Of a DNA stretch of 64,000 nucleotides, positions 33,759-54,874 are shown piece after piece. Every line of letters begins with the position of its first letter. Within the stretch, counting starts at the first letter, position 1. Under the pieces are notes generated by a model. The model was given only the letters and a program-made list of their open reading frames with translations. It had not been told where the DNA came from and did no database searches. The stretch lies in contig JACRDP010000029.1 in assembly GCA_016212855.1 (NCBI GenBank), positions 186,001-250,000 of the forward strand. The letters are read 5' to 3'. Source of the stretch: Elusimicrobiota bacterium (lineage in GTDB: Bacteria > Elusimicrobiota > Elusimicrobia > UBA1565 > UBA9628). The position numbers and the translations under genes were made by a program.

Positions 33759-34775
33759 ATGAGGCGCGCTCTCCCGCTCGCCGTTCTCGCGCTCGCGCTC
33801 TCCGCCTGCACCGGCGGCAAGACCACGGTCAAGGCCGACTCCGGCCCTCAGTATGAGGCTGTCAAAGAGCGCGCCGCCAAAGCGCACGGCGACGCGGCGC
33901 CCGTTTCCGGCGGCACCGTCGTCAAGACCGAAAAGGGGACGAGCGTCGAGGAGACGCCGCGCAACGAGGTCCAGGAGCGCAAGGGACGCGTTCTCGGGGT
34001 CGATCCCGAGGGCTGCACCTGGCTCGAGGGCTCGGCCACGGTCTCCGTCGGCCCGCAGGACACGCGCCATCAGACGCGCGCCGCCGCGATGGAGCAGGCG
34101 CGCGCCGCCGCGGTGCAGGATTTCCTCGGCGTCGAAGTAAAGTCGCGGTTCATGGATTTCCAGCAGGAAGGCCTGCGCAAGGAGTCGCGCCTCACCGAGG
34201 GCATTTTACAGACGACGCGCAACGGGCGCATCGTCAAGGAGCAGGTTCTCGACGAAGGCTATCGCGACGCCCCGGACTGCCCGGGCTGCCTGTACCGCAT
34301 GAAGCTCAAGGCCTGCACCGTGCCGCGCGGCTCGGACAGCGACAAAGATTTCGCGGTCGAGCTGCTGGTGTCCAACCAACGCTACTTTCACGGCGACGAG
34401 GCCAAACTCACGGTGACCGCCACGCGCGACTGCTGGATCTACCTCTACAACATCTACGACCTCGGCGCGGCGGATCAAACCGCGCTCGTCGTGCCGAATG
34501 AAAATCTGACGGAAAAGCGACTGAAGGCGGGCGAATCCTGGACGTACCCCGACGAGGAGGCCGCCAAACGCGGCGTGCGGCTCGTCGCCGAACTTCCGCA
34601 GGCGGGCGACGAAGTGTCCGCCGAAACGATCCGCGTGGTCGCCGCGAAAGCCGCGCTGTCCAAGACGGTGTACGGCCCCGCCGACGGCGGCTGGCTCGGC
34701 GTCCTGCGCCGTCTCAACCGCGCGAAGGTCGAGTGGACCGACGACACCGAGGCGTACACCATCTACAAAAAATGA
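33759..34775 (+). CDS. Lipoprotein with DUF4384-like C-terminal domain
   Basis: Lipobox LALALSAC; FAVELLVSNQRYFHGDEAKLTVTATRDCWIYLYNIYDLG...LVVPNENLTEKRLKAGESWTYPDEE. Confidence 0.7.
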   Translation: MRRALPLAVLALALSACTGGKTTVKADSGPQYEAVKERAAKAHGDAAPVSGGTVVKTEKGTSVEETPRNEVQERKGRVLGVDPEGCTWLEGSATVSVGPQDTRHQTRAAAMEQARAAAVQDFLGVEVKSRFMDFQQEGLRKESRLTEGILQTTRNGRIVKEQVLDEGYRDAPDCPGCLYRMKLKACTVPRGSDSDKDFAVELLVSNQRYFHGDEAKLTVTATRDCWIYLYNIYDLGAADQTALVVPNENLTEKRLKAGESWTYPDEEAAKRGVRLVAELPQAGDEVSAETIRVVAAKAALSKTVYGPADGGWLGVLRRLNRAKVEWTDDTEAYTIYKK

Positions 34776-37700: not shown

Positions 37701-40700
37701 GGATCAAGCGCGGCGCCGCGCCCGACGCCGGGTGCGCGTGCGTGCTCGTCGCGCGCGATTGGAAGGAACTCCTGTCTTTGGCCCGCTCCTCCGCCGACTC
37801 GGTGCGCGAAAATCCCGAGCGCCCGCTCGCCTCCGACCGCGCCTACCTCACCACTCGCAAGCCGCTCGCGGGGGACCTGGCCTTCGTTTTCCCCGGCTCC
37901 GGCAACCAATACCTCGGCATGACCGTGGACCTCGGCGCGCAATGGCCCGAGGTCCTGCGGCGGCAGGACCATGAAAACGGCTACCTGCGCGATCAGCTCA
38001 CCCCCGAGCGCATCTCTCCGTGGCGCCTCGCCTTCGAACCCGGCTGGGAACTCAAGGCCGAGAACGAGCTGAACGCCGACTACCACGCCCTCATCTTCGC
38101 CTCGGTCTCCCACGGCACGGCGACCTCGGATCTTCTGCGCTCCTTCGGCGTCGAGCCCGCCGCGGTCGTGGGTTATTCGCTCGGTGAGACGGCCGGCTTG
38201 TTCGCCACGCGCGCTTGGACCTCGCGCGACGAAATGCTCCGCCGCATGAAGCAGTCCTCCTTGTTCACCTCCGAGCTCGCCGGGCCCTGCGACGCGGCCC
38301 GCCAGTTCTGGCGCCTGCCCGCCGACGAAAAGGTCGACTGGGTGCTCGGCGTCGTGGATCGTCCGGCCGACGCGGTCAATCGCGCGTTGAAAGCGGCCGA
38401 CCGCGCGGCGCTCTTGATCGTCAACGCGCCGGTCGAATGCGTCGTGGGCGGCTACCGCTCCGCGGTCGAGAAGCTCGTCGAGGGTTTGGGCTGCGTGTTC
38501 CTGCCGCTCCAGGGCGTCTCGACCGTGCACTTTCCCGCGGCCAAGCTCGTCGAGAAGCAGTACCGGGATTTGCATCTCTTCCCGACCCGCGCCCCGAAGG
38601 GCATCCGCTACTACTCCGGCGCCTTCGGCAAAGCCTACGAAGTCACGCGCGAGTCCGCCGCCGACTCGATCACCACCCAGGCGATTCGCGCCGTCAACTT
38701 CGCCGCGCTCGTGAAGACCGCGTACGAGGACGGCGTGCGCACCTTCGTCGAGCTCGGCCCGCAGGCCTCCTGCACGCGCATGATCGGCAAGATCCTCGGC
38801 CCGCTGACGCACAACGCGCGAGCCATCGATAGCCGCGGCGCCGACGCCGTCAGTAGCGTGCTCAAGCTCCTCGCCTATCTCATCGCCGAGCGTGTGCCCG
38901 TCGATCTCAAGCCTCTCTACGGCGCGCGCACGTTCTGCGCCGGCCACCAGCCCACTTTGCCCGCGTCCGCGCAGTTCGTCCGCCTCCCGCTCGGCGGCCG
39001 CCCGTCGAAAGTCTCCTGGACCCCGTCGCGTAACGAGCCGCCGCCTCCGCAGGCGCCTTCGGCGCCCGCCTTCATACCGGCGCCGAGCGTCCGGATTCCT
39101 GAGCCGCGCCTTCCCGGCGCCGAGTTTGTTCCCCGACTATCCTCAAGGATAGTCGCGCCTCCGCCGGTGATGCCCTCCACAGCCGGGACTTTGGCGAATG
39201 CCGCCGCCCTCACCGCCCAGGCTCACCAGATGTATCTCAAGCTCGCCGAAAACTTCGCCTCGCTCCAATCCAAAAATTTGGCCGAACAAATTCGCATCGC
39301 GAGCGGCCAAGCGACCGTTCCGAGTGTTCCGAGTGTCAGGCTTAACAATTTGGTGAATTCGCCGGCGCCGAAGTCCGTCTTCATGGACCGCAAGGCGTGT
39401 CTGGAGTTCGCCTCCGGAAAGATCGGCGCGGTCCTAGGGGAAGCGTTCGCGCATGTGGACGCCTACCCGACGCGCGTGCGCCTGCCGGAAGAGCCGCTGA
39501 TGCTGTGCGACCGCGTCGTGAGCGTCACTGGGACGCCCAATTCCATGAAGGCGGGCTCGTGCATTACTGAGCATGACGTTTTAACTAACGGGTGGTACTT
39601 AGACGGAGGACGTATTCCCACCTGTATCGCCGTGGAGGCCGGTCAAGCAGACCTCTTTCTTTCCGGTTATCTCGGCATCGACACCCAGACCAAGGGCAAC
39701 GCGGTTTATCGGCTTCTCGACGCGATCGTCACCTTCCACGATCACCTGCCCAAGCCCGGTCAGGTGATCAAGTACGACATCTCCATCGACGGCTTCGGCC
39801 AGCACGACGACATCTGGCTGTTCTTCTTCCGCTACGACTCCACCGTCGACGGCAAGCCGCTCCTCACCATGCGTAAAGGCTGCGCCGGCTTCTTCACGAA
39901 CGCCGAACTCGCCAAGGGTAAGGGGATCGTCCTCACCGACGCCGAGAAGCAGCCCGTCCCGGGCAAGCTTCCGTCCGATTGGAAGGCGCTCGCGCCGTTC
40001 AACGAGAAGATTTCGCTTACCGAAGCCCAGTTCAAGTCTCTGCGCTCGGGCGATCTCGGTGCGGCCTTCGGCCCCTCCTTCGCGTCCATCCCGTTCGTCC
40101 CCGACACCTTGCCCGGCGGCCGCATGAAGCTCGTCGATCGCATTCTCGAACTCGATCCCAAAGGCGGCCGCTACGGCCTCGGCCGCGCGGTCGGCGAGAT
40201 GGACATTCATCCCGACGACTGGCACCTCGTCTGCCACTTTAAAGACGACAACGTGATGCCGGGCACCTTGATGTACGAGTGCTGCCTACACACGCTTCGC
40301 GTCCAGCTCATGCGCATGGGCTGGGTGGGGGAAAAGGGCCAGATCTGGCACGAGCCCGTCCCCGGCGTCGCTTCCCAGCTCAAGTGCCGCGGCCAGGTGC
40401 TCGCCTCCACGAAGAAAGCGCGCTACGAGCTGCACGTCAAAGAGCTCGGGTATGAAGCCGACGGCACGCCCTTCTGCGTGGCCGACGCCTTCATGTACTC
40501 CGACGACAAGAACATCGTCCAGATCGCCGACATGTCGGTCCGCCTCTCCGGCACGAACCGCGCCGCCATCGAGTCCCTCTGGTCCAAGAAAGAGAAGACC
40601 GTCCTGTACGGCCCGGACAAGATCATGGCCTACTCGAACGGGAACCCGTCCGAGGCTTTCGGCGAACCGTACAAGATCTTCGACAAGGACCGCATCCTGG

Positions 40701-41659
40701 CCCGCCTGCCGGGGCCCCCGTATCAGTTCCTCGATCGCATCGTCGAAACCAAGGGCGCTCCGTTCGTACTTAAAGCGGGCGCCGCCGCCACCGCCGAATA
40801 CGACGTCCCACGCGAGGCGTGGTACTTCGCCGAAAATGGCCAGCCCACCATGCCCTTCGCCATCCTTCTCGAAGTGGCCCTCCAGCCTTGCGGCTGGCTC
40901 GCCGCCTACTGCGGTTCCGCGCTGACGAGCCCGATCGATTTGTCGTTCCGCAACCTCGGCGGCGACGCCATTCAGTATGTCGAGATCACGCCCGAGACCG
41001 GGACCCTTATCACGTCGGTTGTGATGACGAAGGTCTCTCAGTCCGGCGGCATGGTGATTCAGAACTACGATATGACCATGACGGACGCGAAAGGCCGCCT
41101 GGTGTACAAGGGCAAGACCGAATTCGGGTTCTTCACGAAGGAATCGCTCTCTCAGCAGGTTGGTTTGCGCGGCGCGAAGCCGTTCGTGCCCGCGTCCGCG
41201 CCCCGTTCGTTGCCGTTAAGCGGAGGTTTGCCTCATCTGCCTGGTCCGATGTTGCTGCTCCTCGATTCCGTCGAACAATACGACAGCGCCGGCCCGAAGG
41301 GCCTCGGCGCGCTCATCGGCCGCCGCGCCGTTAATCCCAAAGAGTGGTTCTTCGACGCGCACTTCTACCAGGATCCCGTCTGCCCCGGTTCTCTCGGCCT
41401 CGAGTCCTTCATCGAGCTCATGAAGTGCCACGCGCGCGACCGCTGGCCCGGCGCCGGCCGATTCGAGAGCATGATCCTCGGCAAGACTCACAAGTGGCTG
41501 TACCGCGGCCAGTACACGCCGGTGAACAAGGCCGTCGAGGTCCAGTGCTGGATCACGGGCGTCGATGAGACGAACAGGACCCTCACCGCCGACGGCTACC
41601 TGCTTCGCGACGGACTCGTCGTTTACGAGATGCGGGACTTTTCCTTGGGAATCGATTAG
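34772..41659 (+). CDS. pfaC: PfaC-type PUFA synthase: KS-CLF-AT-DH-DH (FabA-like)
   Basis: KS FTLDAACASSLYALK; CLF FTVSAEENSGLKAVE (Cys replaced); AT FVFPGSGNQYLGM/VGYSLGETAG; FabA-type HFKDDNVMPGTLMYE and HFYQDPVCPGSLGLE; ATGA overlap with upstream gene. Confidence 0.92.
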   Translation: MSSKPEAIAVVGAGGIFPDAPTSAAFWENLSTGRCSSREIPHGRWALDPASVFDPAKGAPDSVYSQKACFISDFRFDPSGLALDAAWAESLDPAFHLALHAGRAALAEAKLSAGDRARTGVILGQLVLPTDAAAAWSRELLLPAFERDALGLTPRRPSSRVNPANRFVAGLPGGVLTKAFGLGGGSFTLDAACASSLYALKFAMEELRAGRADAMLAGGMARPQSLYTQMGFAQLRALSPSGVPSPFDASADGLVVGEGAGLFVLKRLSDAQRNGDRIRAVLLGGGLSNDVGGSLLAPNTVGQLRAMRAAYQETGLSPSQIDFVECHATGTPTGDPIEIASLKALWGERGWTPGQCGLGSVKSNIGHLLTAAGSAGLMKMLLSFEKETFAPNANFKTPNPNAGLNGSPFRVQTEAAPWARRDAKTPRRAALSAFGFGGINAHLIVEEAPERRRSPKSVPAPRRAPENLIPVAVVGMDARFGSLTGLRAYQEAVLSGASLDSGYAEDRWWGADAPAGYKGRFLREAGSDASAFRIPPKEMEEMLPQQLLALQSASAALSDACISEEGRDRVGVFLGVAFDLAITQYDLRWSLETKADEWAKAGGWRLNSVERAQYLKSLRDASGPALTANRVMGGLASVAASRVAREFRLGGPSFTVSAEENSGLKAVEAAVRSLQRGETDAALACAADVCGDARALAGAHALKPFTADGSPRPFESTADGSTPGEGAAAVVLKRLDDALRDGDRVYCVIKGVGSASGGGADAIVPTTEAVLESMRRAYEDGRVDPSTVGLIECHGSGEPREDRSEAAAMVEFFGTAESPLRVALSTSKTVVGHAGAAAGLAGFVKAALALYQEILPAGPSLANPVAPLSGARKRFHSPRRASYWLRNRAEGPRRAGVTSLGVDGGAVHAVLEQLERETFDDRIVDERRQPLGARSEALFAVEAGSSNELLVGLAALTDWTAAQDPNDGIETLARRWWIKRGAAPDAGCACVLVARDWKELLSLARSSADSVRENPERPLASDRAYLTTRKPLAGDLAFVFPGSGNQYLGMTVDLGAQWPEVLRRQDHENGYLRDQLTPERISPWRLAFEPGWELKAENELNADYHALIFASVSHGTATSDLLRSFGVEPAAVVGYSLGETAGLFATRAWTSRDEMLRRMKQSSLFTSELAGPCDAARQFWRLPADEKVDWVLGVVDRPADAVNRALKAADRAALLIVNAPVECVVGGYRSAVEKLVEGLGCVFLPLQGVSTVHFPAAKLVEKQYRDLHLFPTRAPKGIRYYSGAFGKAYEVTRESAADSITTQAIRAVNFAALVKTAYEDGVRTFVELGPQASCTRMIGKILGPLTHNARAIDSRGADAVSSVLKLLAYLIAERVPVDLKPLYGARTFCAGHQPTLPASAQFVRLPLGGRPSKVSWTPSRNEPPPPQAPSAPAFIPAPSVRIPEPRLPGAEFVPRLSSRIVAPPPVMPSTAGTLANAAALTAQAHQMYLKLAENFASLQSKNLAEQIRIASGQATVPSVPSVRLNNLVNSPAPKSVFMDRKACLEFASGKIGAVLGEAFAHVDAYPTRVRLPEEPLMLCDRVVSVTGTPNSMKAGSCITEHDVLTNGWYLDGGRIPTCIAVEAGQADLFLSGYLGIDTQTKGNAVYRLLDAIVTFHDHLPKPGQVIKYDISIDGFGQHDDIWLFFFRYDSTVDGKPLLTMRKGCAGFFTNAELAKGKGIVLTDAEKQPVPGKLPSDWKALAPFNEKISLTEAQFKSLRSGDLGAAFGPSFASIPFVPDTLPGGRMKLVDRILELDPKGGRYGLGRAVGEMDIHPDDWHLVCHFKDDNVMPGTLMYECCLHTLRVQLMRMGWVGEKGQIWHEPVPGVASQLKCRGQVLASTKKARYELHVKELGYEADGTPFCVADAFMYSDDKNIVQIADMSVRLSGTNRAAIESLWSKKEKTVLYGPDKIMAYSNGNPSEAFGEPYKIFDKDRILARLPGPPYQFLDRIVETKGAPFVLKAGAAATAEYDVPREAWYFAENGQPTMPFAILLEVALQPCGWLAAYCGSALTSPIDLSFRNLGGDAIQYVEITPETGTLITSVVMTKVSQSGGMVIQNYDMTMTDAKGRLVYKGKTEFGFFTKESLSQQVGLRGAKPFVPASAPRSLPLSGGLPHLPGPMLLLLDSVEQYDSAGPKGLGALIGRRAVNPKEWFFDAHFYQDPVCPGSLGLESFIELMKCHARDRWPGAGRFESMILGKTHKWLYRGQYTPVNKAVEVQCWITGVDETNRTLTADGYLLRDGLVVYEMRDFSLGID

Positions 41660-41663
41660 GTCG

Positions 41664-43202
41664 ATGGAGCGGAACTATCCTGGTAGGTTATATAAGCAGT
41701 TCGCCCTTGGACTCCTTCTGGCCCTGGGGGGATGCTCGTTACAACTGAAGCGCGCGGATAAATTCCTGCTGGAGGAGAAATTCGAGGCTGCTGAGAGAGA
41801 GTATCTAGGAGTCCTTTCTTCAAATCCTAAGAATTCTCACGCGATTTACGGTCGCGACGCATCTAGGCGTGGCATTATCGGAACACAGTTGTTGCAGGTT
41901 CGCCATCTTCGTATGGCTGGAAACGGAGAAGAGGCATTAGAGTTGCTCTTGGCAGTGATGAAGTCTGAAAATGAGTGGCAGGCTTTCCCGGTCGGCGCGG
42001 AGTTTACTACTCAGCGAGAAGAAGTTGATAACGCCTGGGACAAAGTCCAGCAGCTAGTTCGGGCGCCATTAGCAGCTAGCCATCCTCTGGTCGCTGAAGC
42101 CATATTCAGAAACTATCGCTTGATATTTTCGAGTAAGGGATATAATTCGCGAGTTCAGGACCTGGAAAAGCTCATTGGGGATAGTGGCCGCACACAATGT
42201 TCTAAGTTCACCTCTAAACTTAATCCGTCACATGATCTGTACGCTTCACTGGTTAAGTCCTATTGTAACCATTGGGCAAAATCCGTCGAGAGGGCTGTGG
42301 CGGTTAGTCACGACCGCTACTTCAAGGGCATAAGTATCACTGGTGACATCGACGGCGTTCCTGGCGAGATTAGTGAGGAAATTCGAATCCGTCTGCGGGA
42401 GAGTTTTGAGAACTCGCCATGGTACTCTGCGGCCGCTACGGCCGTTATCCCTGCGCGGCTGATCGGACGATTCCATCAAGCTCAAGCGGAAGAGCCGATT
42501 GTAAAGGTTCACAGCTACACGGTGCAGATTCCAGAAACCGTCATGGTTGAGAAAATGGGATCCGAACAGGTTCCATATACAGTCGTTGAGTCGAATAGCG
42601 CCCAAGTCCCTTATACGGAATATGAGACTCGATACAACTTTTATACCCACCAGAATGATTTGGCTCCGGTGACGCGATATAAGACGGTCTACTACAACGA
42701 AACGGTTACAAAGTATCGAACGCGTTACTACACGTATACTGAGCCTGAAACTGTAATGCGTCCAGAAGAGCGCCATGTGAATTACGAGGCATTCAAGTAT
42801 CAACAGACCGTCTTATTGATGGCTAAACTCGAGTTCAAGGTTGCTGGACAGCTTGTTTCCCTACCACTCAATGAGCGAGACGGTGTCAGCGGGACGTATC
42901 ACAATAATTCATCTTCCGATGTGGGGCTTTATCCTGAGGCGAAACGCGTGATAGAGCCGGTGCGATGGGTAAAAGATAAGATGGAATCTGTCGCCTCATC
43001 GCTTGTTCAGGAGGGTAAAAACTTTTGGGAGCGCCGATATTGCAAAACTATCCAGATTGCTGGAGAACCTTCCGTCGATGGGGAGAATGTCTTGCAATGC
43101 ATGGCTGCTTCAACTAATTCGCATGTTGCGGACGATTGGTCTCAGAAATTCTTCGGCATTCCAATATCACAACTGCGCTCGGACATAATCGTATCCAAAT
43201 GA
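41664..43202 (+). CDS. Low-GC lipoprotein of unknown function, Tyr/Thr-rich repeats, inserted between pfaC and oleA
   Basis: MERNYPGRLYKQFALGLLLALGGCSLQ (lipobox LGGC); QVPYTVVESNSAQVPYTEYETRYNFYTHQ...TRYKTVYYNETVTKYRTRYYTYTEPETVM; sampled GC 40% (line 42601) vs 67% (line 43261). Confidence 0.75.
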   Translation: MERNYPGRLYKQFALGLLLALGGCSLQLKRADKFLLEEKFEAAEREYLGVLSSNPKNSHAIYGRDASRRGIIGTQLLQVRHLRMAGNGEEALELLLAVMKSENEWQAFPVGAEFTTQREEVDNAWDKVQQLVRAPLAASHPLVAEAIFRNYRLIFSSKGYNSRVQDLEKLIGDSGRTQCSKFTSKLNPSHDLYASLVKSYCNHWAKSVERAVAVSHDRYFKGISITGDIDGVPGEISEEIRIRLRESFENSPWYSAAATAVIPARLIGRFHQAQAEEPIVKVHSYTVQIPETVMVEKMGSEQVPYTVVESNSAQVPYTEYETRYNFYTHQNDLAPVTRYKTVYYNETVTKYRTRYYTYTEPETVMRPEERHVNYEAFKYQQTVLLMAKLEFKVAGQLVSLPLNERDGVSGTYHNNSSSDVGLYPEAKRVIEPVRWVKDKMESVASSLVQEGKNFWERRYCKTIQIAGEPSVDGENVLQCMAASTNSHVADDWSQKFFGIPISQLRSDIIVSK

Positions 43203-44206
43203 AATATTCAAAAGTGTCTCTCTCTGGCCTCGCTTACGAGTTGGCCCCCAACGTCATCACCTCCTCCGAGCTCGAAAAGCGCATCGAGCCCGTGTACCAG
43301 GCCCTGCGCTTCCAGGTCGGCCAGATCGAGGCCCTGACCGGCATCAAAGAGCGCCGCTGGTGGAACGAGGGCTTCAAGCTCTCCAACGGCGCCGCCAACG
43401 CCGGCAAGAAGGCTCTGGCGAAGGCCGGGGTCAGACCCCAGGACCTGGGCGTCGTGATCTACGCCGGTGTCTGCAAGGAATCAAGCGAGCCCGCCACCGC
43501 CTGCGCCGTCGCCTCCAAGATCGGCGTGAGCAAGGATTGCGCCGTCTTCGACATCAGCAACGCCTGCCTCGGCGTCATGTCCGGCATGGTGGACATCGCC
43601 AACCGCATCGAGCTCGGCCAGATCAAGGCGGGGCTCGTCGTCTCCTGCGAGTCGGCCCGCGAGATCAACGAGAGCATGATCCAGTCGATGCTGAAAACGC
43701 CCACGATGGAGCACTTCAAGCTCTCGATCGCGACGCTTACCGGCGGCTCCGGCGCCGTCGGCGTCGTGCTGACCGACGGAAGCTTCGGCAAGAAGGGCCC
43801 GAAGCTTATCGGCGGCACGACCCAGGCCGCGCCCCAGCATTGGGACCTGTGCCAGTGGGACCGCGACTTCATGCGCACCGACGCGCCCGCCGTGCTGAAG
43901 AACGGAATGGAGCTCGCCAAGCTGACCTGGCAGAGCTTTTCCCAGAAGATCGGCTGGACGACGATGGACAAGACCATCACCCACCAGGTCGGCGGCCCTC
44001 AGACGACCGCCTTGCTGACGGCCTGCGGCGTCGGCCACGACAAGGACTTCCCCACATACGAATTCTTGGGGAATATCGGAACCGTGAGCCTGCCCTTGAC
44101 GGCCGCCTTGGCCGACGAGCGCGGCTTTCTGGAGAAGGGCGACAAGGTCGCCTTCGTCGGCATCGGCTCGGGGCTCAACTGCATGATGCTGGGGCTCGAG
44201 TGGTAG
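43199..44206 (+). CDS. oleA: OleA-type head-to-head condensing thiolase
   Basis: VCKESSEPATACAVA, FDISNACLGVMSGMVDIANRI (Cys), THQVGGPQT (His), FLGNIGTVSLPLT (Asn); ATGA overlap upstream. Confidence 0.88.
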   Translation: MKYSKVSLSGLAYELAPNVITSSELEKRIEPVYQALRFQVGQIEALTGIKERRWWNEGFKLSNGAANAGKKALAKAGVRPQDLGVVIYAGVCKESSEPATACAVASKIGVSKDCAVFDISNACLGVMSGMVDIANRIELGQIKAGLVVSCESAREINESMIQSMLKTPTMEHFKLSIATLTGGSGAVGVVLTDGSFGKKGPKLIGGTTQAAPQHWDLCQWDRDFMRTDAPAVLKNGMELAKLTWQSFSQKIGWTTMDKTITHQVGGPQTTALLTACGVGHDKDFPTYEFLGNIGTVSLPLTAALADERGFLEKGDKVAFVGIGSGLNCMMLGLEW

Positions 44207-45084
44207 ACAAAACGCTGTATCCCTTCACCGGCCGCCGCATCGACCTCGGCGGCTACGCGATGCACTTTCTCGACGAGGGAAAGGGCGAGACCGTGCTGAT
44301 GGTGCACGGCAACCCGACCTGGTCTTTTTACTTTCGAGAGGTCGTCAAAGCCCTCTCTCCGGAGTTCCGCTGCATCGTGCCCGATCACATCGGCATGGGC
44401 CTCTCCGACCGGCCGGACGATGAGCGCTACGACTACACGCTCAAGAGCCGCGTCGACGACCTCGAGAAGCTGATGGAGGCCGTCGCGCCGAAAGGCCCGG
44501 TGACGCTCATCGTCCACGACTGGGGCGGCATGATCGGCATGTCCTGGGCGGTGCGCCACCCGGAGAGGATCAAGGCCATCGTCGCGCTCAACACGAGCTG
44601 CTTTCGTTTGCCCGAGGAGAAGCCCTTCCCGCCGGGCCTGACCATCATGCGCGGAAGCATCACGGGGATCCCCTTGAGAGCCTTCGGCTTTTTCCGGAGA
44701 GTGGTTCTGCGCTCGTGCACCGCCAAGACGAAGCTGAGCGAAGAGGTCATGAACGGCTACCACGAGCCCTACGACGGCTGGAGCGAGAGCCGGGCCGTGC
44801 ACCGCTTCGTCCAGGACATCCCGCTCGGGCCCGAGGACAAGGCCTGGCGCGCGATGGAAGCGACCGAGGTCAAGCTCGAGAAATTGAAGGACGTTCCGAT
44901 GCTCCTGCCCTGGGGGATGAAGGACTGGGTGTTCGACGCGGCCTTCCTGAACGGCTGGAGAAAGCGGTTTCCGAACGCGACGGTGAAGCGCTTCGAGGAC
45001 TGCGGCCACTTTCTTCTGGAAGACGCCGGCAAAAAGGTCGTCGAGTTGATCCAGGATTTCGTCCGGCGGCGCGTCCCGGCATGA
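44200..45084 (+). CDS. oleB: OleB-type alpha/beta hydrolase (haloalkane-dehalogenase fold; putative beta-lactone decarboxylase)
   Basis: GTG start overlapping oleA stop; MVHGNPTWSFYFREVV, HDWGGMIGMSWAVRHPERI, CGHFLLED. Confidence 0.87.
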   Translation: MVDKTLYPFTGRRIDLGGYAMHFLDEGKGETVLMVHGNPTWSFYFREVVKALSPEFRCIVPDHIGMGLSDRPDDERYDYTLKSRVDDLEKLMEAVAPKGPVTLIVHDWGGMIGMSWAVRHPERIKAIVALNTSCFRLPEEKPFPPGLTIMRGSITGIPLRAFGFFRRVVLRSCTAKTKLSEEVMNGYHEPYDGWSESRAVHRFVQDIPLGPEDKAWRAMEATEVKLEKLKDVPMLLPWGMKDWVFDAAFLNGWRKRFPNATVKRFEDCGHFLLEDAGKKVVELIQDFVRRRVPA

Positions 45085-46673
45085 AGGCCGGCGGCGATCT
45101 CGGCTCGAGGCTTCTCGACAACGCGAAGCGGCTGAAAGATCAGCCCGCGCTGATTCACAAGGACGCGGTCGTCACCTTCGAGGAGCTGGGCAAGGACGTC
45201 GAGCTGCTGGCCCAGGGGTTCCTGCGCGCGGGGCTGAAGAGGAACCAGCGCGTGGCCGTGCTGATCCCGCCGTCGAAGGACTTCTTCGCGACGGCCTTCG
45301 CTTTGTTCCGCGCGGGCATGACGCCGGTGCTCATCGATCCCGGGATCGGCTTTTCGAATTTGGGACGCTGCCTCGCGGAGGCGGAGCCCGACGCGTTCGT
45401 GGGCTCGGCCAAGGCGCATATCGCCCGCGCGGCGGGCGGCTGGGCGCCGACGGCGGGCCTCAAGATCGTCGCGGGAGGGCCGTCGCTCGGTCTGCCGACG
45501 CTCTCGACGATGCGCGAGCTGGGCGAAGGGCGCACGCTCGACCTGCCCGCGCTCGCGCCGGACACCCGCGCCGCGATTTTATTCACGTCGGGCAGCACCG
45601 GCGCGCCCAAGGGCGCCGTGTACGAACACTCGATGTTCTCCGCGCAGGTGGATCAGCTCCGCGAGCTGTTCGACATAAAGGAAGGCGAGATTTCTCTGGC
45701 GACCTTTCCGCTGTTCGCGATTTTCGACCTGGCTCTGGGCCAGACCGTGATTCTGCCGGAGATGGACTTCTCGAGGCCGGGGCTCGTTCAACCCATGTCC
45801 ATTATAGAACCGGCGCAGAAATATAAGGCGATGCAGCTGTTCGGCTCGCCCGCGTTGCTCGACCGCGTCGGGCGTTTCGGGGCCGCGCACGGGATCGCCT
45901 TGCCGCACCTGCGGCGCGTGATGTCGGCGGGGGCGCCGGTGCCGGCGAAGGTGCTGGAGACGTTCGCGAAGGTTTTGCAGCCGATGACGCCGATTTATAC
46001 GCCTTATGGAGCGACCGAAGCGTTGCCCGTCGCGCTGACGAATTCGAATGAAATATTGAGCGACACGGCGAAGGAAACGGCGACCGGAAGGGGAATTTGC
46101 GTCGGGCGGCCTGTTCCCGGCATCAAAACGGAAGTGATCCGGATCGAGGACGGGCCGATCGTGACCTGGAGCGACGAGCTCAAGCTCCCTCAAGGCCAAG
46201 TCGGTGAGATTGTCGTGCAGGGGCCCGTCGTCACGGGAGAATATTTTAGGCGTGTCGAAGACATGTCCAAAGCCAAGATCGGCGACGGGAAGACGTTCTG
46301 GCACCGCATGGGCGACCTCGGGTACTTCGATGAACAGGGACGGCTGTGGTTCTGTGGACGAAAGGCCCACCGCGTGAAGACCGAAAAGAGCGTGCTCTTC
46401 ACGATCCGCGTCGAGCAGGTCTACAACGTCCACCCGAAGGTGAAGCGCACGGCCTTGGTCGGCGCGGGCTTAACCCCGGTCTTGTGCGTCGAGCTCGAGC
46501 CCGGGACCCGGCCGAGCGAGGAGCTCAAGCGCGAGCTCCTGGCCCTGCCCAACGCCGCGCCCGAAGTGAAGGACGTGCTGTTTCATCCCGGATTTCCCGT
46601 GGACACGAGGCACAACGCCAAGATCAACCGCGAGGCGCTGGCCGTGTGGGCGATCAAGGAGTTGGGCGGATGA
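45081..46673 (+). CDS. oleC: OleC-type AMP-dependent ligase (putative beta-lactone synthetase)
   Basis: ILFTSGSTGAPKGAVYEHSMFSAQV, PIYTPYGATEALPVA, HRMGDLGYFDEQGRLWFCGRKAHRV; ATGA overlap with oleB. Confidence 0.89.
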   Translation: MKAGGDLGSRLLDNAKRLKDQPALIHKDAVVTFEELGKDVELLAQGFLRAGLKRNQRVAVLIPPSKDFFATAFALFRAGMTPVLIDPGIGFSNLGRCLAEAEPDAFVGSAKAHIARAAGGWAPTAGLKIVAGGPSLGLPTLSTMRELGEGRTLDLPALAPDTRAAILFTSGSTGAPKGAVYEHSMFSAQVDQLRELFDIKEGEISLATFPLFAIFDLALGQTVILPEMDFSRPGLVQPMSIIEPAQKYKAMQLFGSPALLDRVGRFGAAHGIALPHLRRVMSAGAPVPAKVLETFAKVLQPMTPIYTPYGATEALPVALTNSNEILSDTAKETATGRGICVGRPVPGIKTEVIRIEDGPIVTWSDELKLPQGQVGEIVVQGPVVTGEYFRRVEDMSKAKIGDGKTFWHRMGDLGYFDEQGRLWFCGRKAHRVKTEKSVLFTIRVEQVYNVHPKVKRTALVGAGLTPVLCVELEPGTRPSEELKRELLALPNAAPEVKDVLFHPGFPVDTRHNAKINREALAVWAIKELGG

Positions 46674-47671
46674 GGGCGCTCGTCACCGGGGGCGGCGGGT
46701 TCCTGGGCGCCGCCCTGGCGCGCAAACTGCGCGAGCGCGGGGACGACGTGCGCGTGTTCGGGCGCGGCTCGTACGCGGACCTCGAGGCGATCGGCATCGA
46801 CTGCGCCAAGGGCGACGTGACCGACTACGCGACGCTCAAGGCGGCGTGCGACGACCGCGACGTGATCTTCCATGTCGCCGCGAAGGTCGGGCTGTGGGGG
46901 AAGTACGAGGACTTTTGCTCGGTGAACGTCGAGGGCACCAAGAACGTCCTGCGCGCCTGTCTGGAGCTGGGCATCGCCAAGCTCGTGTTCACCGGCTCGC
47001 CTTCGGTCGTATTTCACGGGGGCGATGTCGATGGCGTGGATGAAAGCGCGCCCTACCCCGAGAAGTTCGATTCTTATTATTCACAGACCAAGGCGCTGTC
47101 GGAGAAGATGGTGCTGGCCGCCAACCATGACAAGCTCGCGACGGTCTCGCTGCGCCCTCATTTCATCTGGGGCCCCGGCGACAGGAATCTTCTGCCGCGC
47201 GTGGCCGCCAAGCAGAGGGCGGGAAGGCTGTATAAAGTCGGCGACGAGAGCAAGTTGGTGGATACGATCTACATCGACGACTGCGTGGACGCCCATATCC
47301 TGGCCGCGGTCCAGCTCTCCCCGGTGTCGGAGATCGCGGGCAAGGCCTACTTCCTGTCGGGGGGAGATCCCCGGCCGTTCTGGGAGATCGTCGACCGCAT
47401 GCTCGCCGCGTCGGGCCTGCCGCCGGTCAAGAAGCGGATGTCGAAGGAACTCGCGTACGCGCTCGCGTCCGTATGCGAAGGAACGTGGCGCCTGCTCCGG
47501 CTGAGCTCGGAGCCGCCGCTGACCAAGTTCCTGGTCGACACCATGACCACCTCCCATTGGTTCGACATCACGGCGGCCAAACGCGAGCTGGGCTGGAAGC
47601 CGCGAGTGAAAATCGAGGATGGCATGACTCGCGTCGCGCAGTGGATTCGGACGACTCAGACCGACGCTTAA
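46670..47671 (+). CDS. oleD: OleD-type NAD(P)-dependent 2-alkyl-3-ketoalkanoate reductase (SDR)
   Basis: MRALVTGGGGFLGAALARKLRERGDDVRVFGRG..., YSQTKALSEK (YxxxK), LRPHFIWGPGD; ATGA overlap with oleC. Confidence 0.89.
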   Translation: MRALVTGGGGFLGAALARKLRERGDDVRVFGRGSYADLEAIGIDCAKGDVTDYATLKAACDDRDVIFHVAAKVGLWGKYEDFCSVNVEGTKNVLRACLELGIAKLVFTGSPSVVFHGGDVDGVDESAPYPEKFDSYYSQTKALSEKMVLAANHDKLATVSLRPHFIWGPGDRNLLPRVAAKQRAGRLYKVGDESKLVDTIYIDDCVDAHILAAVQLSPVSEIAGKAYFLSGGDPRPFWEIVDRMLAASGLPPVKKRMSKELAYALASVCEGTWRLLRLSSEPPLTKFLVDTMTTSHWFDITAAKRELGWKPRVKIEDGMTRVAQWIRTTQTDA

Positions 47672-50136: not shown

Positions 50137-50928
50137 CTAGTGCCGCTCGTAGTAAAACCCGACGTCCTTCGCGTCGTCGGGGTTGATGACGAGGAGCTCG
50201 TCGGTCGTGAAGAACGGCTTCCAGTTCACGATGTCGACGAACACGGCGATGCGCGGCAGGATCTTGTCCGCGCCCTGAGCGATCGGGCCCTTCGCCTTGA
50301 AGGTGAAGATCTTCGGCGCGGACTCGATCATGTCGAACTTGCCGGTGATGTCGGCCTGGAAAAAGTCGGCGACCTTGTCCGCGGAGAGGCGGGTGTTGAT
50401 CCGCTTGTGCAGGTAGTCGCCGCCGGTGGCGTCGTGAGAGCCGAAGTAGGCGCCGGGCACGTAGTCTTCCCACGTCGAGGAGACCTTGCCCTCCCAGTTG
50501 ATCTCCTCGTCGGCCTGGCCGTTCTCTTTGCGGATGAGCACGGCGCCGGCGAGGGAGCCTTTTTCGGTCAAGGTCAGCTCGCTGACGGCCTTGCTCGCGT
50601 CCACCTCGATGCCGCCGGCCGCGGCGACCTTGACGGGCTTGAGCGAGAAGCGCAGCTTGTCGATCTGTCCGATGCGGAACAGGTACAGGCGCGGCACCCA
50701 GTTGCAGACGCGCAGGCGCTCCGGCAGGAGCGGGACCGGCAGGCGCGTGTACTCGGCGAGGATCGCGTAGCCGGACGTCGGGTTGTCCTTGTCGGCCTTG
50801 ATGATCAGGGCCATGACGTCCTGCTTCCTGATCTGGGTGGAGCCCCACGAGCCCTCGGGGATCGGGCCGGCCACGGCGGCCGCGGCGAGGACGGAGACGA
50901 GAACGAGCGAGTGAACGAGGTTCTTCAT
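50137..50928 (-). CDS. Secreted protein of unknown function, probably co-transcribed with the downstream-numbered oxygenase gene
   Basis: Signal peptide MKNLVHSLVLVSVLAAAAVAG; begins 8 bp from the end of the 50936-54874 gene, same strand. Confidence 0.65.
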   Translation of the reverse strand: MKNLVHSLVLVSVLAAAAVAGPIPEGSWGSTQIRKQDVMALIIKADKDNPTSGYAILAEYTRLPVPLLPERLRVCNWVPRLYLFRIGQIDKLRFSLKPVKVAAAGGIEVDASKAVSELTLTEKGSLAGAVLIRKENGQADEEINWEGKVSSTWEDYVPGAYFGSHDATGGDYLHKRINTRLSADKVADFFQADITGKFDMIESAPKIFTFKAKGPIAQGADKILPRIAVFVDIVNWKPFFTTDELLVINPDDAKDVGFYYERH

Positions 50929-50935
50929 ATAGCTC

Positions 50936-53900
50936 CTAGAATCCGAACAGGCCCTTGGCCACGAGCCAGGGGATGAGGATGTACAGGGTCACGTCGCGGA
51001 CGAGATAGTACGAGACGACGGCCGCGATCGCGATCCAGCCCAAGCGCCACACGGTCGAGAAGAAGGTTCCGGCCGCGCGGACGTCGGTCATGACCCGCGC
51101 GGGCGTGTACGGCAGGACGAGGCTGCCCGCGAGCGTGCGGACGGCTCCGCCCAGCTTCTTCAGGTCGGACTTCGCCTTCTCTTTCAGAGTCGGCTTGCCG
51201 CCGGGGTTCGCCGCGCGGAGGTCCGGGTGGACCCCGTCGAGCGCGCGCTCGGCCATGATGTCGGCCTGGGCCGAGCCCTGGTAGAACCGGAGCAGCATGT
51301 CGCGGCTGATCGCGGGAACGAGGGCCTTATCCTCGTTGGCCACGCGGTCGGCGTACAACTGCAGCAGCTGATCCGTGCGCTTCTTCACCGCGAGTCCGCC
51401 GAGGAAGCGGTAGAACGGGCCGCCGATGCCTTCCTGCTTGGCGCGCCAGCGGTTGCCCTCGCGCAGGCGCGAGAAGTCGTAGGCGGTCATGTAGTCGCGG
51501 CCGGGCGCGTAGGTGGAGAACATCTTGTCGAACTCCTCCATGTCCACGTCGCCGGGCTTGATGCCCTTTTCGTTGCCTTCCGCCGCGTAGATGCGCGTGG
51601 TGGAGGGTCCCTGCGCCTTGACCATGTTCGGAACGTAGATCGCCAGCGGGTTGAAGAGGATGCCGGCGTTCCAGCGGGCCTTGAGGCCCAGGCCGCGCTG
51701 AGTGCGGTGTCCGAAGACGATGTGCGAGATCAGAGCGGTCTTGAACGCGCTGATCTTGCCCAGGCCGTGCTCGTTGAGCGCGCGATAGCTGCGCCAGACG
51801 GTCGCCACATTGGAGCCCGGCTGCACGAGGAACGAATAGCGCTTCTCGATCGCGCTGTCGCCGGGAACGTCGGCGGCCTTCGTGATCTGAGCCTCGTAGC
51901 CCTCGCGCAGACGGTTCTGCAGGGCGATCTTGAGGATTTGCATGTCGTTCTCATACACGTCCGTCGCCTTCATGACGGAGCGCGCCGAGAGCGCCGTGAG
52001 GCCCGCGAGGACCGCCACGACCGGGTTCGTCCCGATCAGGGTCCAGGCGGCGAACAGGCCGCCGTACAGCGCGACCCGCGCGCCGAGCCTGCCGAGAACC
52101 GCGGCGACGCGCGCCGTCTTTTCGCCCTGGAACAACGTCGGGAACATCGAATGGCGGCGGTCCGTATAGGCGCTCTGCCACGTCTTCTGCATGTAGCGCC
52201 ACGCGAGCATGCGCTTGTAGTAGAGGAGAACCGGCAGGCCCAGCGCGAGCATCGCGACGGGCACGACGGTGAAGGCGGAAACGGCTACGCCGAGCCACGC
52301 CGAGAAGGCGGTGAACGTGCCGATCGCGAGCAGCCGCATCGTCTTCTTAAGAATCTTGCTTGAGTTCTCGTTGGCCTTGTCGAGCAGGCGCACCGGGAAC
52401 GTCTCGGTGTCCTGCCACGGGGCGAACCAGCGCGTGACGCCTTCCATCGAAGCGATGACGGCGGGGCCGTTGGGCAGGCCCTTCATCGCGCGGGCGATCA
52501 CGCCGCCCATGCCGCCGCTGTGCCACGCCCACTCCATGCCTTCGTAGGTGTAGTCCTTGTGCGTGTAGAACTCGGTCAGATGGCGGTTGCTCTTCACGCG
52601 CCGGGGCGCGTTGAGCACGAACTGGTAGAACTGGGTGAAGCCCAGCGCGAAGCCCGCGGGCTTGGGCTCGGCCAGGATGCCGATGCCCGGGGGCACGGCC
52701 TCGATGTCGCCCTCGAACGTGCGCTCGAGCTCCTTGGCGAGCTCGGCGTCGCCGCCGGTCAGCTCGAGGAAGCTTTTCACGGGCGGCTCGCCGAGCGAGC
52801 GGCGGAACTCGTTGTAGGAGCCCGTGCCGTCGGTCATCTCGCGGAAGATGTCGAGCATCGCGAGGTCGGTGAGCTGGCCGTTCTGCTGGTTCTTGAACTG
52901 GGTCAGCGCCGTGGGGAAATTATGGAGCTTGAGCGCGCCGGCCGACTTCTTGACGAAGGAGTAGGCGAGCACGTCGTAGCCGTATTTCTCCACGATCGGG
53001 CGCGTGTTCTGGTGGACGAAGTCGATCAGCTCGGCGCGGCCGAGCATGCGGTCGGTGCCGGGCTCGATGAACTCGTGCTGGTCGAGGATCAACTCGTGCA
53101 GGCGGTACACCATGCGGAAGTGCTTGGGCACCTGGAACGGGCCGTCGTGGTGCTCCCACTTCGAGCCGGGCATGCCCCAGATCACGTCGTTGTTGGAGAC
53201 CGGCTTGATGAGCTTGGCGAACCACGGGTGGCGGTAGGACATGCGCATCAGCCAGGCCTTGATCTTCGGGCCGAAGAGGCCGTAGAACTCGGCGTGCATG
53301 CCTTCTTGAAGAGTAGGATGCTGAAGGAGGTCCTCGGTCCACTCCGTCGTGTGGATCTGGTTGATGCTCGCGACGTTGATCTTGCGGGCGTAGTCGAAGA
53401 GCGCCGCGTCGTCCCAGCCCGGGTTGAACTTCCGGATATGGTCGACGATGTTGTTGTGGTTCACGACGAACGCCCAGTGCAGGAAGGAGAGCAGGGGGTT
53501 GTAGTTGTTCGTGAAGCCGGAGAGGTCGATGCCGGGCTTGGCCGGGTTGGCGGGCAGGCGGCCGTTCTCGTCGACGAGCATCTTGCCGTCGGTCCAGGTG
53601 CGCAGCGGCTTCTGCTCCTCTTCGTTCGTGCCGTAGATCTGGGCCTGGATCCAGGCCTGGGTCCGCTCGTTCATGATCGTCGGTCGGCCGTTATCGGTCA
53701 CACGGGTCGGGTCTTTGCTGGTGCGGTCGACGACCATCTCCTTCTCTTTCCAGCCTTCCTTGGCGGGCATCTCGACCTTGTGAGGATTCTCGGTGATCGG
53801 GTCGCGCTTCGTGTTGCCGCCGAAGTTGTGGAACTGGAACTGGATCCAGCCGCCGGCGAGGTCGTTGAGGATGAGCGCGGGCTGGAAGATCGTCTTGCCG

Positions 53901-54874
53901 CCGATCTCGAGACGGTGTTTGAGCTTGCCGATCTCGCGCGCCTTGAGCATCAGGTTCTCGGCGTCGGGGCGGACCTTCTTGGGAGGGATGTTGGAGCCGT
54001 CGCGCGTGTTCTCGGCGCCCATGCGCGGGTTCTCTTTGTCGGAAACCCACGAGCCGTCGGCGGTGTAGCCGCGCTTGGCCTGCAGGGGCTCCTCGCCCTT
54101 GGGCTTCACGTCGTTGGAGGCGTAGTCGTTGGGATCGGTGAGGGTGTCGGAGCGGACGAAGCGGATCTTGGCGATCAGGTAGGCGAGGCCGAGCTTGGTG
54201 GGCCACTTATCCCACGACACGCGGCGGTTCGGGTCCTTCGCGAACTTCAGGTTGGCCCACTGCAGGATGTTGTAGAAGGCGTTCCAGTAAACGTACTTGG
54301 CCGGGCCGACGCCGACGCGCGAGGAGCGCGGCGCGAACAGCTCGGGGTTGGTCTCGGGGCCGACGGGTCCGGCCTTGGCGGCGGGGGCCAGGGGGGCCGC
54401 GCCTTCACCGGCCGCGCCGGGGACCGCGTCGTCGGACTTCGCGGCGGCGGAGCCGCTATAAAAGGAATCGAGCGCGGGAGCGGCCGCGGCGGCGTCTTTC
54501 TTGTCTCCGTTCAGGCTGGCGCCGAGGGCGACGGCGGCCGCGAGCGGCGTCGCGGGCTTCGCGGCGATCGCGGCGGCGGGCGAGACGCTGGCGGTGGGAG
54601 CGACCAGCGCGACGGGAGCAGCGAGAGCGGGCGCGGGCGTCATGCTGAGACCGGAAAGCGAGGGGGCGATCAGACCGGCGCCGGACAAGGAGGGCGCCGA
54701 GATCGGGGCGAAGCCGCCGCCGAGCTGTGGGATGACGGCCGGGCCCGTGACGGGCGCCACGCCGGCGCGGGCGTTGATCGCCTGCGCGAACGACTGCAGC
54801 GGCGCGCAGACGCAGAGAATGGAGGAGAGGAGAGCGGCGACGGCCTTGCGCGGAGCGAAGGGGGTCTTGGTCAT
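50936..54874 (-). CDS. Exported/membrane heme fatty-acid alpha-dioxygenase-like protein with caleosin-like C-terminal domain
   Basis: Signal-like N-terminus and A/P-rich linker; LNDLAGGWIQFQFHNF, QAQIYGTNEEEQKPLRTWTDGK, NQIHTTEWTEDLLQHPTLQEGMHAEFYGLFG, FRMVYRLHELILD; several TM segments; C-terminal caleosin-like segment. Confidence 0.8.
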   Translation of the reverse strand: MTKTPFAPRKAVAALLSSILCVCAPLQSFAQAINARAGVAPVTGPAVIPQLGGGFAPISAPSLSGAGLIAPSLSGLSMTPAPALAAPVALVAPTASVSPAAAIAAKPATPLAAAVALGASLNGDKKDAAAAAPALDSFYSGSAAAKSDDAVPGAAGEGAAPLAPAAKAGPVGPETNPELFAPRSSRVGVGPAKYVYWNAFYNILQWANLKFAKDPNRRVSWDKWPTKLGLAYLIAKIRFVRSDTLTDPNDYASNDVKPKGEEPLQAKRGYTADGSWVSDKENPRMGAENTRDGSNIPPKKVRPDAENLMLKAREIGKLKHRLEIGGKTIFQPALILNDLAGGWIQFQFHNFGGNTKRDPITENPHKVEMPAKEGWKEKEMVVDRTSKDPTRVTDNGRPTIMNERTQAWIQAQIYGTNEEEQKPLRTWTDGKMLVDENGRLPANPAKPGIDLSGFTNNYNPLLSFLHWAFVVNHNNIVDHIRKFNPGWDDAALFDYARKINVASINQIHTTEWTEDLLQHPTLQEGMHAEFYGLFGPKIKAWLMRMSYRHPWFAKLIKPVSNNDVIWGMPGSKWEHHDGPFQVPKHFRMVYRLHELILDQHEFIEPGTDRMLGRAELIDFVHQNTRPIVEKYGYDVLAYSFVKKSAGALKLHNFPTALTQFKNQQNGQLTDLAMLDIFREMTDGTGSYNEFRRSLGEPPVKSFLELTGGDAELAKELERTFEGDIEAVPPGIGILAEPKPAGFALGFTQFYQFVLNAPRRVKSNRHLTEFYTHKDYTYEGMEWAWHSGGMGGVIARAMKGLPNGPAVIASMEGVTRWFAPWQDTETFPVRLLDKANENSSKILKKTMRLLAIGTFTAFSAWLGVAVSAFTVVPVAMLALGLPVLLYYKRMLAWRYMQKTWQSAYTDRRHSMFPTLFQGEKTARVAAVLGRLGARVALYGGLFAAWTLIGTNPVVAVLAGLTALSARSVMKATDVYENDMQILKIALQNRLREGYEAQITKAADVPGDSAIEKRYSFLVQPGSNVATVWRSYRALNEHGLGKISAFKTALISHIVFGHRTQRGLGLKARWNAGILFNPLAIYVPNMVKAQGPSTTRIYAAEGNEKGIKPGDVDMEEFDKMFSTYAPGRDYMTAYDFSRLREGNRWRAKQEGIGGPFYRFLGGLAVKKRTDQLLQLYADRVANEDKALVPAISRDMLLRFYQGSAQADIMAERALDGVHPDLRAANPGGKPTLKEKAKSDLKKLGGAVRTLAGSLVLPYTPARVMTDVRAAGTFFSTVWRLGWIAIAAVVSYYLVRDVTLYILIPWLVAKGLFGF
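51240..51840 (-). other. Caleosin-like domain within the 50936-54874 gene
   Basis: VWRSYRALNEHGLG...ISHIVFGHRTQ...FNPLAIYVPNMVKAQGPSTTRIYAAEGNEKG...EEFDKMFSTYAPGRDYMTAYDFSRLREGNR...FYQGSAQADI. Confidence 0.65.
52500..54300 (-). other. Alpha-dioxygenase (animal-heme-peroxidase superfamily) domain within the 50936-54874 gene
   Basis: Ordered match to remembered plant alpha-DOX segments: GLAYL, WIQF..H, IYG(S/T)N, RT..DGK, KIHT..WT, (V)YR(L/M)H, LHN(F/Y)P.AL. Confidence 0.75.

What the first reader, a model, noticed from the sequence alone, without database searches (positions are those of the whole stretch)
50936..54874. Natural fusion of a fatty-acid alpha-dioxygenase with a caleosin-like peroxygenase domain
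Seen: a 1312-aa ORF. Its middle reads in order GLAYLIAKIR, LNDLAGGWIQFQFHNF, IYGTNEEEQKPLRTWTDGKML, NHNNIVDHIRKFNP, NQIHTTEWTEDLL, GMHAEFYGLFG, FRMVYRLHELILD, LHNFPTAL. This tracks plant alpha-DOX from memory, including the distal His, the IHT..W segment and the Tyr/proximal-His VYR(L/M)H motif. After about 150 aa of TM helices comes VWRSYRALNEHGLG...FNPLAIYVPNMVKAQGPSTTRIYAAEGNEKG...EEFDKMFSTYAPGRDYMTAYDFSRLREGNR...FYQGSAQADI. This resembles the caleosin pattern PWETYxGFRxLGFN...PFFPIYIxNIHKAKHGSDSGTYDTEGRF...FEEIFSKYA...LT...GNR...DGSLF. Established: alpha-DOX adds O2 at C2 of fatty acids to give 2-hydroperoxides; caleosins are heme peroxygenases on lipid droplets; in Arabidopsis alpha-DOX1 and caleosin-3 act together to make a 2-hydroxy fatty acid. 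Inference: this bacterial polypeptide carries both steps, exported or membrane-anchored.
Basis: partly seen in the sequence, partly recalled or inferred. Interest (0 to 1): 0.93.

Follow-up and report, generated by a model that had tools for sequence, protein, structure and literature searches.

The report
Fatty-acid dioxygenase fused to pseudo-caleosin
A group of uncultured Elusimicrobiota bacteria makes one exported membrane protein that joins a plant-type fatty-acid-oxidising enzyme to a relative of the plant oil-body protein caleosin, but the caleosin part has lost the residues it would need to act as the second enzyme.

Summary
The 1312-aa ORF (50936-54874, minus strand) has a signal peptide, a complete alpha-dioxygenase (alpha-DOX) domain (PDB alpha-DOX 1.7e-57; all catalytic residues present), a membrane region and a true caleosin-family domain (Pfam PF05042, 30.8 bits against cut-off 27; profile-profile E = 9.5e-25 against standalone Elusimicrobiota caleosins; same order of predicted secondary structure). 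It is not an assembly artefact: about ten Elusimicrobiota genomes carry the fusion, one of them a single-contig genome, and the trees of both halves fit one fusion event. In the window protein the EF-hand and both haem-binding histidines that define caleosin/peroxygenases are gone (Arg1012 and Gly1089 in their place), while standalone caleosins of the same phylum mostly keep them. The domain is still under purifying selection. I therefore read it as an exported, membrane-anchored alpha-DOX with a pseudo-caleosin module for lipid anchoring or presentation, not a proven two-step dioxygenase-peroxygenase. A further unknown secreted protein (50137-50928) lies 7 bp downstream, occurs only with this enzyme in the order, and is fused to it in one genome. 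A PUFA-synthase and ole hydrocarbon cluster lies nearby, suggesting polyunsaturated substrates. No activity was tested.

The parts
50936..54874 (-). alpha-DOX / pseudo-caleosin fusion protein, 1312 aa
54779..54874 (-). signal peptide, aa 1-32 (hydrophobic core aa 11-29), followed by an Ala/Pro-rich linker to about aa 187
   Evidence: hydropathy; sequence
52490..54232 (-). alpha-dioxygenase domain, aa 215-795
   Evidence: phmmer against 4hhr/4kvj; Foldseek best match 4hhs; 35% identity to a Calothrix PCC 6303 plasmid alpha-DOX homologue
53828..53830 (-). His349 = distal haem His (rice H157)
   Evidence: present in all 10 sequences that cover the site
53096..53107 (-). Tyr590 and His593 = catalytic Tyr379 and proximal His382 of rice alpha-DOX
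   Evidence: invariant in 11 of 11
53336..53353 (-). His508, Trp512, Thr513 = rice H311, W315, T316 (substrate positioning)
   Evidence: invariant
52598..52600 (-). Arg759 = rice R559 (binds the substrate carboxylate)
   Evidence: invariant
51920..52399 (-). helical, partly hydrophobic membrane region, aa 826-985
   Evidence: hydropathy and predicted long helices
51245..51871 (-). caleosin-family domain without EF-hand or haem His (pseudo-caleosin), aa 1002-1210
51839..51841 (-). Arg1012 at the position of the first caleosin haem His
   Evidence: Arg in 6 of 8 fused-type domains; His in G056 and G006 and in 5 of 6 standalone caleosins
51608..51610 (-). Gly1089 at the position of the second caleosin haem His (HGSDS motif)
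   Evidence: G, N or S in all fused-type domains; His in 4 of 6 standalone caleosins
51722..51724 (-). His1051, the only His invariant in all fused-type domains (TALLSH helix)
50972..51028 (-). C-terminal hydrophobic segment, aa 1283-1301
   Evidence: absent in G044, G056, G006, G029
50137..50928 (-). partner protein, 263 aa, exported, unknown family, 7 bp downstream
   Evidence: directly downstream in G016, G007, G011, G009, G001; fused in G036; found only in genomes with this enzyme

Best explanation
An exported, membrane-anchored fatty-acid alpha-dioxygenase. The haem DOX domain (shown by homology, with all catalytic residues) should abstract the alpha-hydrogen of a free fatty acid with its Tyr590 radical and add O2 at C2 to give a 2-hydroperoxy acid (inferred from the family). 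The C-terminal half is a helical membrane region followed by a caleosin fold that has lost both haem histidines and the calcium site. It is kept under purifying selection and most likely acts as a non-catalytic lipid-interface module that anchors the enzyme and presents lipid (inferred). With no intact peroxygenase site, the 2-hydroperoxide would be released, decay to the C(n-1) aldehyde plus CO2, or be handled by another protein, possibly the secreted partner encoded at 50137-50928. Polyunsaturated acids from the neighbouring Pfa-type synthase are plausible substrates.
For: alpha-DOX match 1.7e-57 over 580 aa. H349, H508, W512, T513, Y590, H593 and R759 conserved in every copy that covers them. 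Caleosin homology: PF05042 in 11 of 11 fused-type domains; hhalign prob 99.6, E 9.5e-25 over 185 columns against standalone caleosins, control alignment 0.1%; same order of helices and strands in separately built models. Haem His and EF-hand loop lost. Among close relatives dN/dS is about 0.23-0.29 in the caleosin domain against 0.09-0.19 in DOX, so it is still constrained. Single fusion origin. Partner linkage and fusion. PUFA synthase and Ole neighbours.
Against: No activity data exist. The genus-level DOX has also lost the residues of the plant Ca2+ site (HD to HN; WWDxS to AWIQA), so DOX activity might be altered. His1051 is invariant in all fused-type domains and could serve another function, haem included. 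The full-length model has low confidence (pLDDT 58.5), so the way the domains pack is unknown.
Confidence: 0.6

Rival explanations
1. Bifunctional dioxygenase-peroxygenase: the caleosin domain still binds haem, with other ligands such as His1051, and turns the 2-hydroperoxide made by the DOX half into a 2-hydroxy acid, in one polypeptide.
For: The domain fold is caleosin. Arabidopsis alpha-DOX1 and CLO3 work in series to make 2-HOT (PMC6914826). His1051 is invariant. G056 and G006 keep the first caleosin His.
Against: Both defining His and the EF-hand are gone in the window protein, and the second His is gone in every fused-type copy. A plant protein with the same losses, AtCLO7, was judged not a true caleosin (PMC5957377).
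Confidence: 0.15
2. The C-terminal half is a degenerate leftover of an ancestral bifunctional enzyme with no present function beyond a linker.
For: Stepwise loss: most standalone caleosins keep both His, G056 and G006 keep one, the genus-level proteins keep none. In G036 half of the domain is deleted.
Against: dN/dS is well below 1 and 29 columns of the domain are invariant across 11 sequences. G036 keeps the whole caleosin-type domain as a separate exported protein.
Confidence: 0.12
3. The DOX half is a haem peroxidase of the same superfamily with a different reaction (for example cyclooxygenase-like, or oxidation of a non-fatty-acid lipid), not C2 dioxygenation.
For: The genus-level proteins lost the Ca2+-site residues and sit on a long branch (0.99).
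Against: H311, T316 and R559 equivalents, which bind the fatty-acid carboxylate and place the alpha carbon in alpha-DOX, are invariant. Best solved-structure and fold matches are alpha-DOX, far ahead of COX and lactoperoxidase.
Confidence: 0.13

Closest known systems
Plant and bacterial alpha-dioxygenase (alpha-DOX; rice 4kvj, Arabidopsis 4hhs, cyanobacterial CalDOX/LepDOX)
   Same: Full-length domain match; catalytic Tyr, both haem His and the carboxylate-binding Arg/His/Thr are conserved.
   Different: Exported, about 650 aa longer, C-terminal membrane and caleosin-type region, and in the genus-level group no Ca2+-site residues. The published family survey dropped sequences over 1000 aa (PMC8720084), so this architecture would have been filtered out.
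Caleosin/peroxygenase (CLO/PXG, PF05042)
   Same: Whole-domain homology and same predicted secondary structure.
   Different: No EF-hand, neither haem His, fused to a dioxygenase, and exported.
Fungal DOX-CYP fusions (linoleate diol, allene oxide and epoxy alcohol synthases)
   Same: Fusion of a haem fatty-acid dioxygenase of the COX/peroxidase superfamily to a second domain (PMC13049297).
   Different: The second domain there is an active P450 on the hydroperoxide; here it is a caleosin fold without its haem ligands. The DOX families differ.
Arabidopsis alpha-DOX1 and CLO3 pair on leaf oil bodies
   Same: Same two protein families, working in series to make a 2-hydroxy C18 fatty acid, 2-HOT (PMC6914826).
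   Different: Separate proteins in plants, and CLO3 is a working peroxygenase.

Membership tests
alpha-dioxygenase | catalytic Tyr (rice Y379) and proximal haem His (H382) | tested here: met
   Tyr590 and His593, invariant in 11 of 11
alpha-dioxygenase | distal haem His (H157) | tested here: met
   His349, present in 10 of 10
alpha-dioxygenase | H311, T316 and R559 for carboxylate binding and alpha-carbon positioning (residues as named in PMC8720084) | tested here: met
   His508, Thr513, Arg759 invariant
alpha-dioxygenase | fold of the alpha-DOX / COX superfamily | tested here: met
   Foldseek best match 4hhs, E 3e-14; the model itself has low confidence
alpha-dioxygenase | Ca2+ site next to the distal His (HD ... 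WWDxS; ligands recalled from memory; whether it defines the family is not established) | tested here: not met
   HN ... AWIQA in the window and its genus-level relatives; kept in G056, G006 and G223. I count this as a variant, since the catalytic set is complete.
alpha-dioxygenase | O2 insertion at C2 of fatty acids | not testable with these tools
   needs expression
caleosin domain family PF05042 (homology) | Pfam match over the curated cut-off and whole-domain profile match | tested here: met
   30.8 bits against 27; hhalign E 9.5e-25 over 185 columns
caleosin/peroxygenase CLO/PXG (as defined in PMC5957377) | single Ca2+-binding EF-hand | tested here: not met
   DxDGDG loop replaced by VQPGSN; no EF-hand Pfam match in any fused-type domain, while 4 of 6 standalone ones match
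caleosin/peroxygenase CLO/PXG | two invariant haem-coordinating His | tested here: not met
   Arg1012 and Gly1089; assignment of the two His rests on Hanano 2006 as recalled and on the motif in PMC5957377
caleosin/peroxygenase CLO/PXG | lipid-binding hydrophobic segment with proline motif | tested here: inconclusive
   the helix and loop are present, but the hydrophobicity lies mostly before the domain, aa 848-964
caleosin/peroxygenase CLO/PXG | peroxygenase activity | not testable with these tools
   needs expression

The most novel reading that the evidence does not exclude
A single-polypeptide, exported fatty-acid alpha-oxidation enzyme in bacteria in which a caleosin fold has been re-tooled, with a new haem or lipid site around His1051 and four fused-specific arginines, to process the hydroperoxide made by its own dioxygenase half, together with a dedicated secreted third protein.
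Probability: 0.15. Interest if true: 0.85.

Novelty: new variant of a known kind. Interest (0 to 1): 0.62.

Why it matters
I found no report of an alpha-DOX fused to a caleosin domain in the open-access papers searched. The family survey that would have met it removed long sequences. The fusion independently pairs the two families that plants use in series for 2-hydroxy fatty-acid oxylipins, which supports a functional tie between them, and it places alpha-oxidation of fatty acids at the envelope of a little-cultured bacterial phylum next to PUFA and olefin synthesis genes. The same phylum holds standalone caleosins with the canonical haem His and EF-hand, so the stepwise loss of the peroxygenase site can be studied in close relatives.

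Tried and rejected
Assembly chimera: rejected, since the fusion recurs in independent genomes including the single-contig G011. Chance Pfam hit: rejected by profile-profile comparison with a negative control, by the Pfam match of all 11 copies and by matched secondary structure. Solved caleosin for comparison: none found; the best 60 hits of the standalone profile are all calmodulins, and Foldseek of its model gave EF-hand proteins without significance. Search for the fusion outside Elusimicrobiota: the one genome-contig scan, with short exact patterns, returned only another Elusimicrobia MAG; standalone caleosin against plasmids gave nothing; plasmid alpha-DOX genes inspected are single-domain; a search centred on another phylum was not accepted by the tool. 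So absence elsewhere is not established. Partner protein: no significant Pfam, NCBIfam or PDB match.
Full report
OBSERVATION. The ORF is real: 50936-54874, minus strand, 1312 aa, ATG start. Pfam finds An_peroxidase at aa 272-785 (1e-50) and Caleosin at aa 1010-1153 (26.4 bits on the whole protein, just under the cut-off of 27). The domain alone scores 30.8 bits, and the six-frame search 30.5 bits. Against solved structures, aa 215-795 match Arabidopsis alpha-dioxygenase at 1.7e-57 and the rice enzyme at 2e-54, far ahead of lactoperoxidase and cyclooxygenases.

ORGANISM AND SPREAD. The window lies in a 2.5-Mb, 30-contig genome of estimated 73% completeness. The closest named relative is an Elusimicrobia MAG. 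In 342 genomes of the phylum, 12 match the protein. Fused forms: the window, G016, G007, G011, G044 (63-78% identical to the window from aa 188 on), and the distant G056, G006, G029 (32-39%). G009 and G001 are cut by contig ends; G001 holds two partial copies. G036 has DOX, membrane region, half a caleosin domain and the partner protein in one 1404-aa frame, and elsewhere a separate exported protein with membrane region plus complete caleosin-type domain. G223 has DOX only. G011 is a single 3.8-Mb contig, so the fusion is not an assembly error.

DOX HALF. Positions named for rice alpha-DOX (PMC8720084, and recalled) map to H349 (distal His), H508, W512, T513, Y590, H593 (proximal His) and R759. 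Each is present in every copy that covers it. The residues that in plant enzymes form the Ca2+ site beside the distal His (ligands recalled from memory) are changed in the genus-level group (HN; AWIQA) but kept in G056, G006 and G223. A structural model of aa 188-1312 has low confidence (pLDDT 58.5), yet its best fold match is alpha-DOX 4hhs.

CALEOSIN HALF. All 11 fused-type domains match PF05042 on their own. A profile of them aligns with a profile of six standalone caleosins of the same phylum over 185 columns, prob 99.6, E 9.5e-25; an unrelated control profile gave 0.1%. The similarity reaches past the Pfam match to the VPAISR..L..Y.G end. The predicted helix and strand order of the fused domain (model built without any standalone caleosin in its alignment) matches the separately built model of a standalone caleosin, including the C-terminal beta hairpin. 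So this is a caleosin homologue. The diagnostic features of caleosin/peroxygenases, an EF-hand and two invariant haem His (PMC5957377), are nevertheless absent in the window protein: Arg1012 for the first His, Gly1089 for the second, VQPGSN for the DxDGDG loop. Five of six standalone caleosins in the phylum keep the first His, four of six the second, and four match EF-hand models. G056 and G006 keep the first His only. This is a graded loss. The domain is not drifting freely: dN/dS between close relatives is about 0.23-0.29, against 0.09-0.19 for DOX, and His1051 and four arginines are invariant in the eight fused-type domains compared. By the published standard it is a PF05042 member but not a caleosin/peroxygenase.

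TOPOLOGY. There is an N-terminal signal peptide, a hydrophobic and helical stretch at aa 826-985 and a hydrophobic tail near aa 1283-1301. The tail is absent in G044, G056, G006 and G029. That the partner protein has its own signal peptide when separate, and none when fused in G036, suggests that the C-terminal side is also extracytoplasmic (inference).

ORIGIN. In the DOX tree the unfused proteins (G223, Calothrix, Qingshengfaniella, Streptomyces) form one group at 100/99. In the caleosin tree the fused-type domains separate from the standalone ones at 100/99. Both fit one fusion event inside Elusimicrobiota. The trees are small and some branches are long.

CONTEXT. A 263-aa exported protein of no known family starts 7 bp downstream (50137-50928). 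It is directly downstream in G016, G007, G011, G009 and G001, fused in G036, and in 56 genomes of the order it occurs in 7, all carrying this enzyme. G044 has the enzyme without it. Convergent to the pair lie OleD, OleC and OleA homologues and a large Pfa-type synthase. In Shewanella the Pfa and Ole pathways are joined to make a polyunsaturated hydrocarbon (PMC6463001). The synthase is found in 62 of 342 genomes and in 10 of the 12 with the DOX, but shared ancestry is not corrected for. I take this as a hint that polyunsaturated acids are substrates.

MECHANISM. Shown by sequence: complete alpha-DOX catalytic set; caleosin fold without its haem and Ca2+ ligands; export signal; partner linkage. 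Inferred: 2-hydroperoxide formation at the envelope, lipid anchoring or presentation by the C-terminal half, and partner-assisted handling of product.

NOVELTY. I found no description of this architecture in the held open-access papers, which exclude most subscription journals. The main alpha-DOX survey discarded sequences above 1000 aa. Bacterial caleosins were previously noted in a myxobacterium. I rate it a new variant of a known kind.

Noticed in passing
window 50137-50928: Exported 263-aa protein of no known family, a constant neighbour of the genus-level DOX fusion and fused to it in G036; conserved STWE..VPG, TGGDY and DIVNWKP..TTDEL motifs.
   Followed up: partly
window 34733-47671: Pfa-type PUFA synthase (KS, KS, AT and dehydratase matches in NCBIfam) followed by OleA, OleC and OleD homologues: a likely polyunsaturated hydrocarbon cluster in Elusimicrobiota.
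   Followed up: partly
L002, L003, L004, L005: Standalone bacterial caleosins with signal-like N-termini that keep EF-hand and haem His (121-149 bits to PF05042), good candidates for bacterial peroxygenases; G001 has one beside the fused protein.
   Followed up: partly
L043 (G006): The TerC - DOX fusion - OleD locus of the genus holds here a version only 38% identical, closer to G056 of another family, with no partner gene: possible replacement of the gene in place.
   Followed up: no
window 50939-51202 and the same region in L021, L022: C-terminal tail: window and G016 are 84% identical while G016 and G007 are 70%, although their DOX domains are 97% identical; suggests recombination in the tail.
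   Followed up: no
L047 (G036): A 593-aa exported protein with only the membrane region and the complete pseudo-caleosin domain, separate from the DOX.
   Followed up: partly
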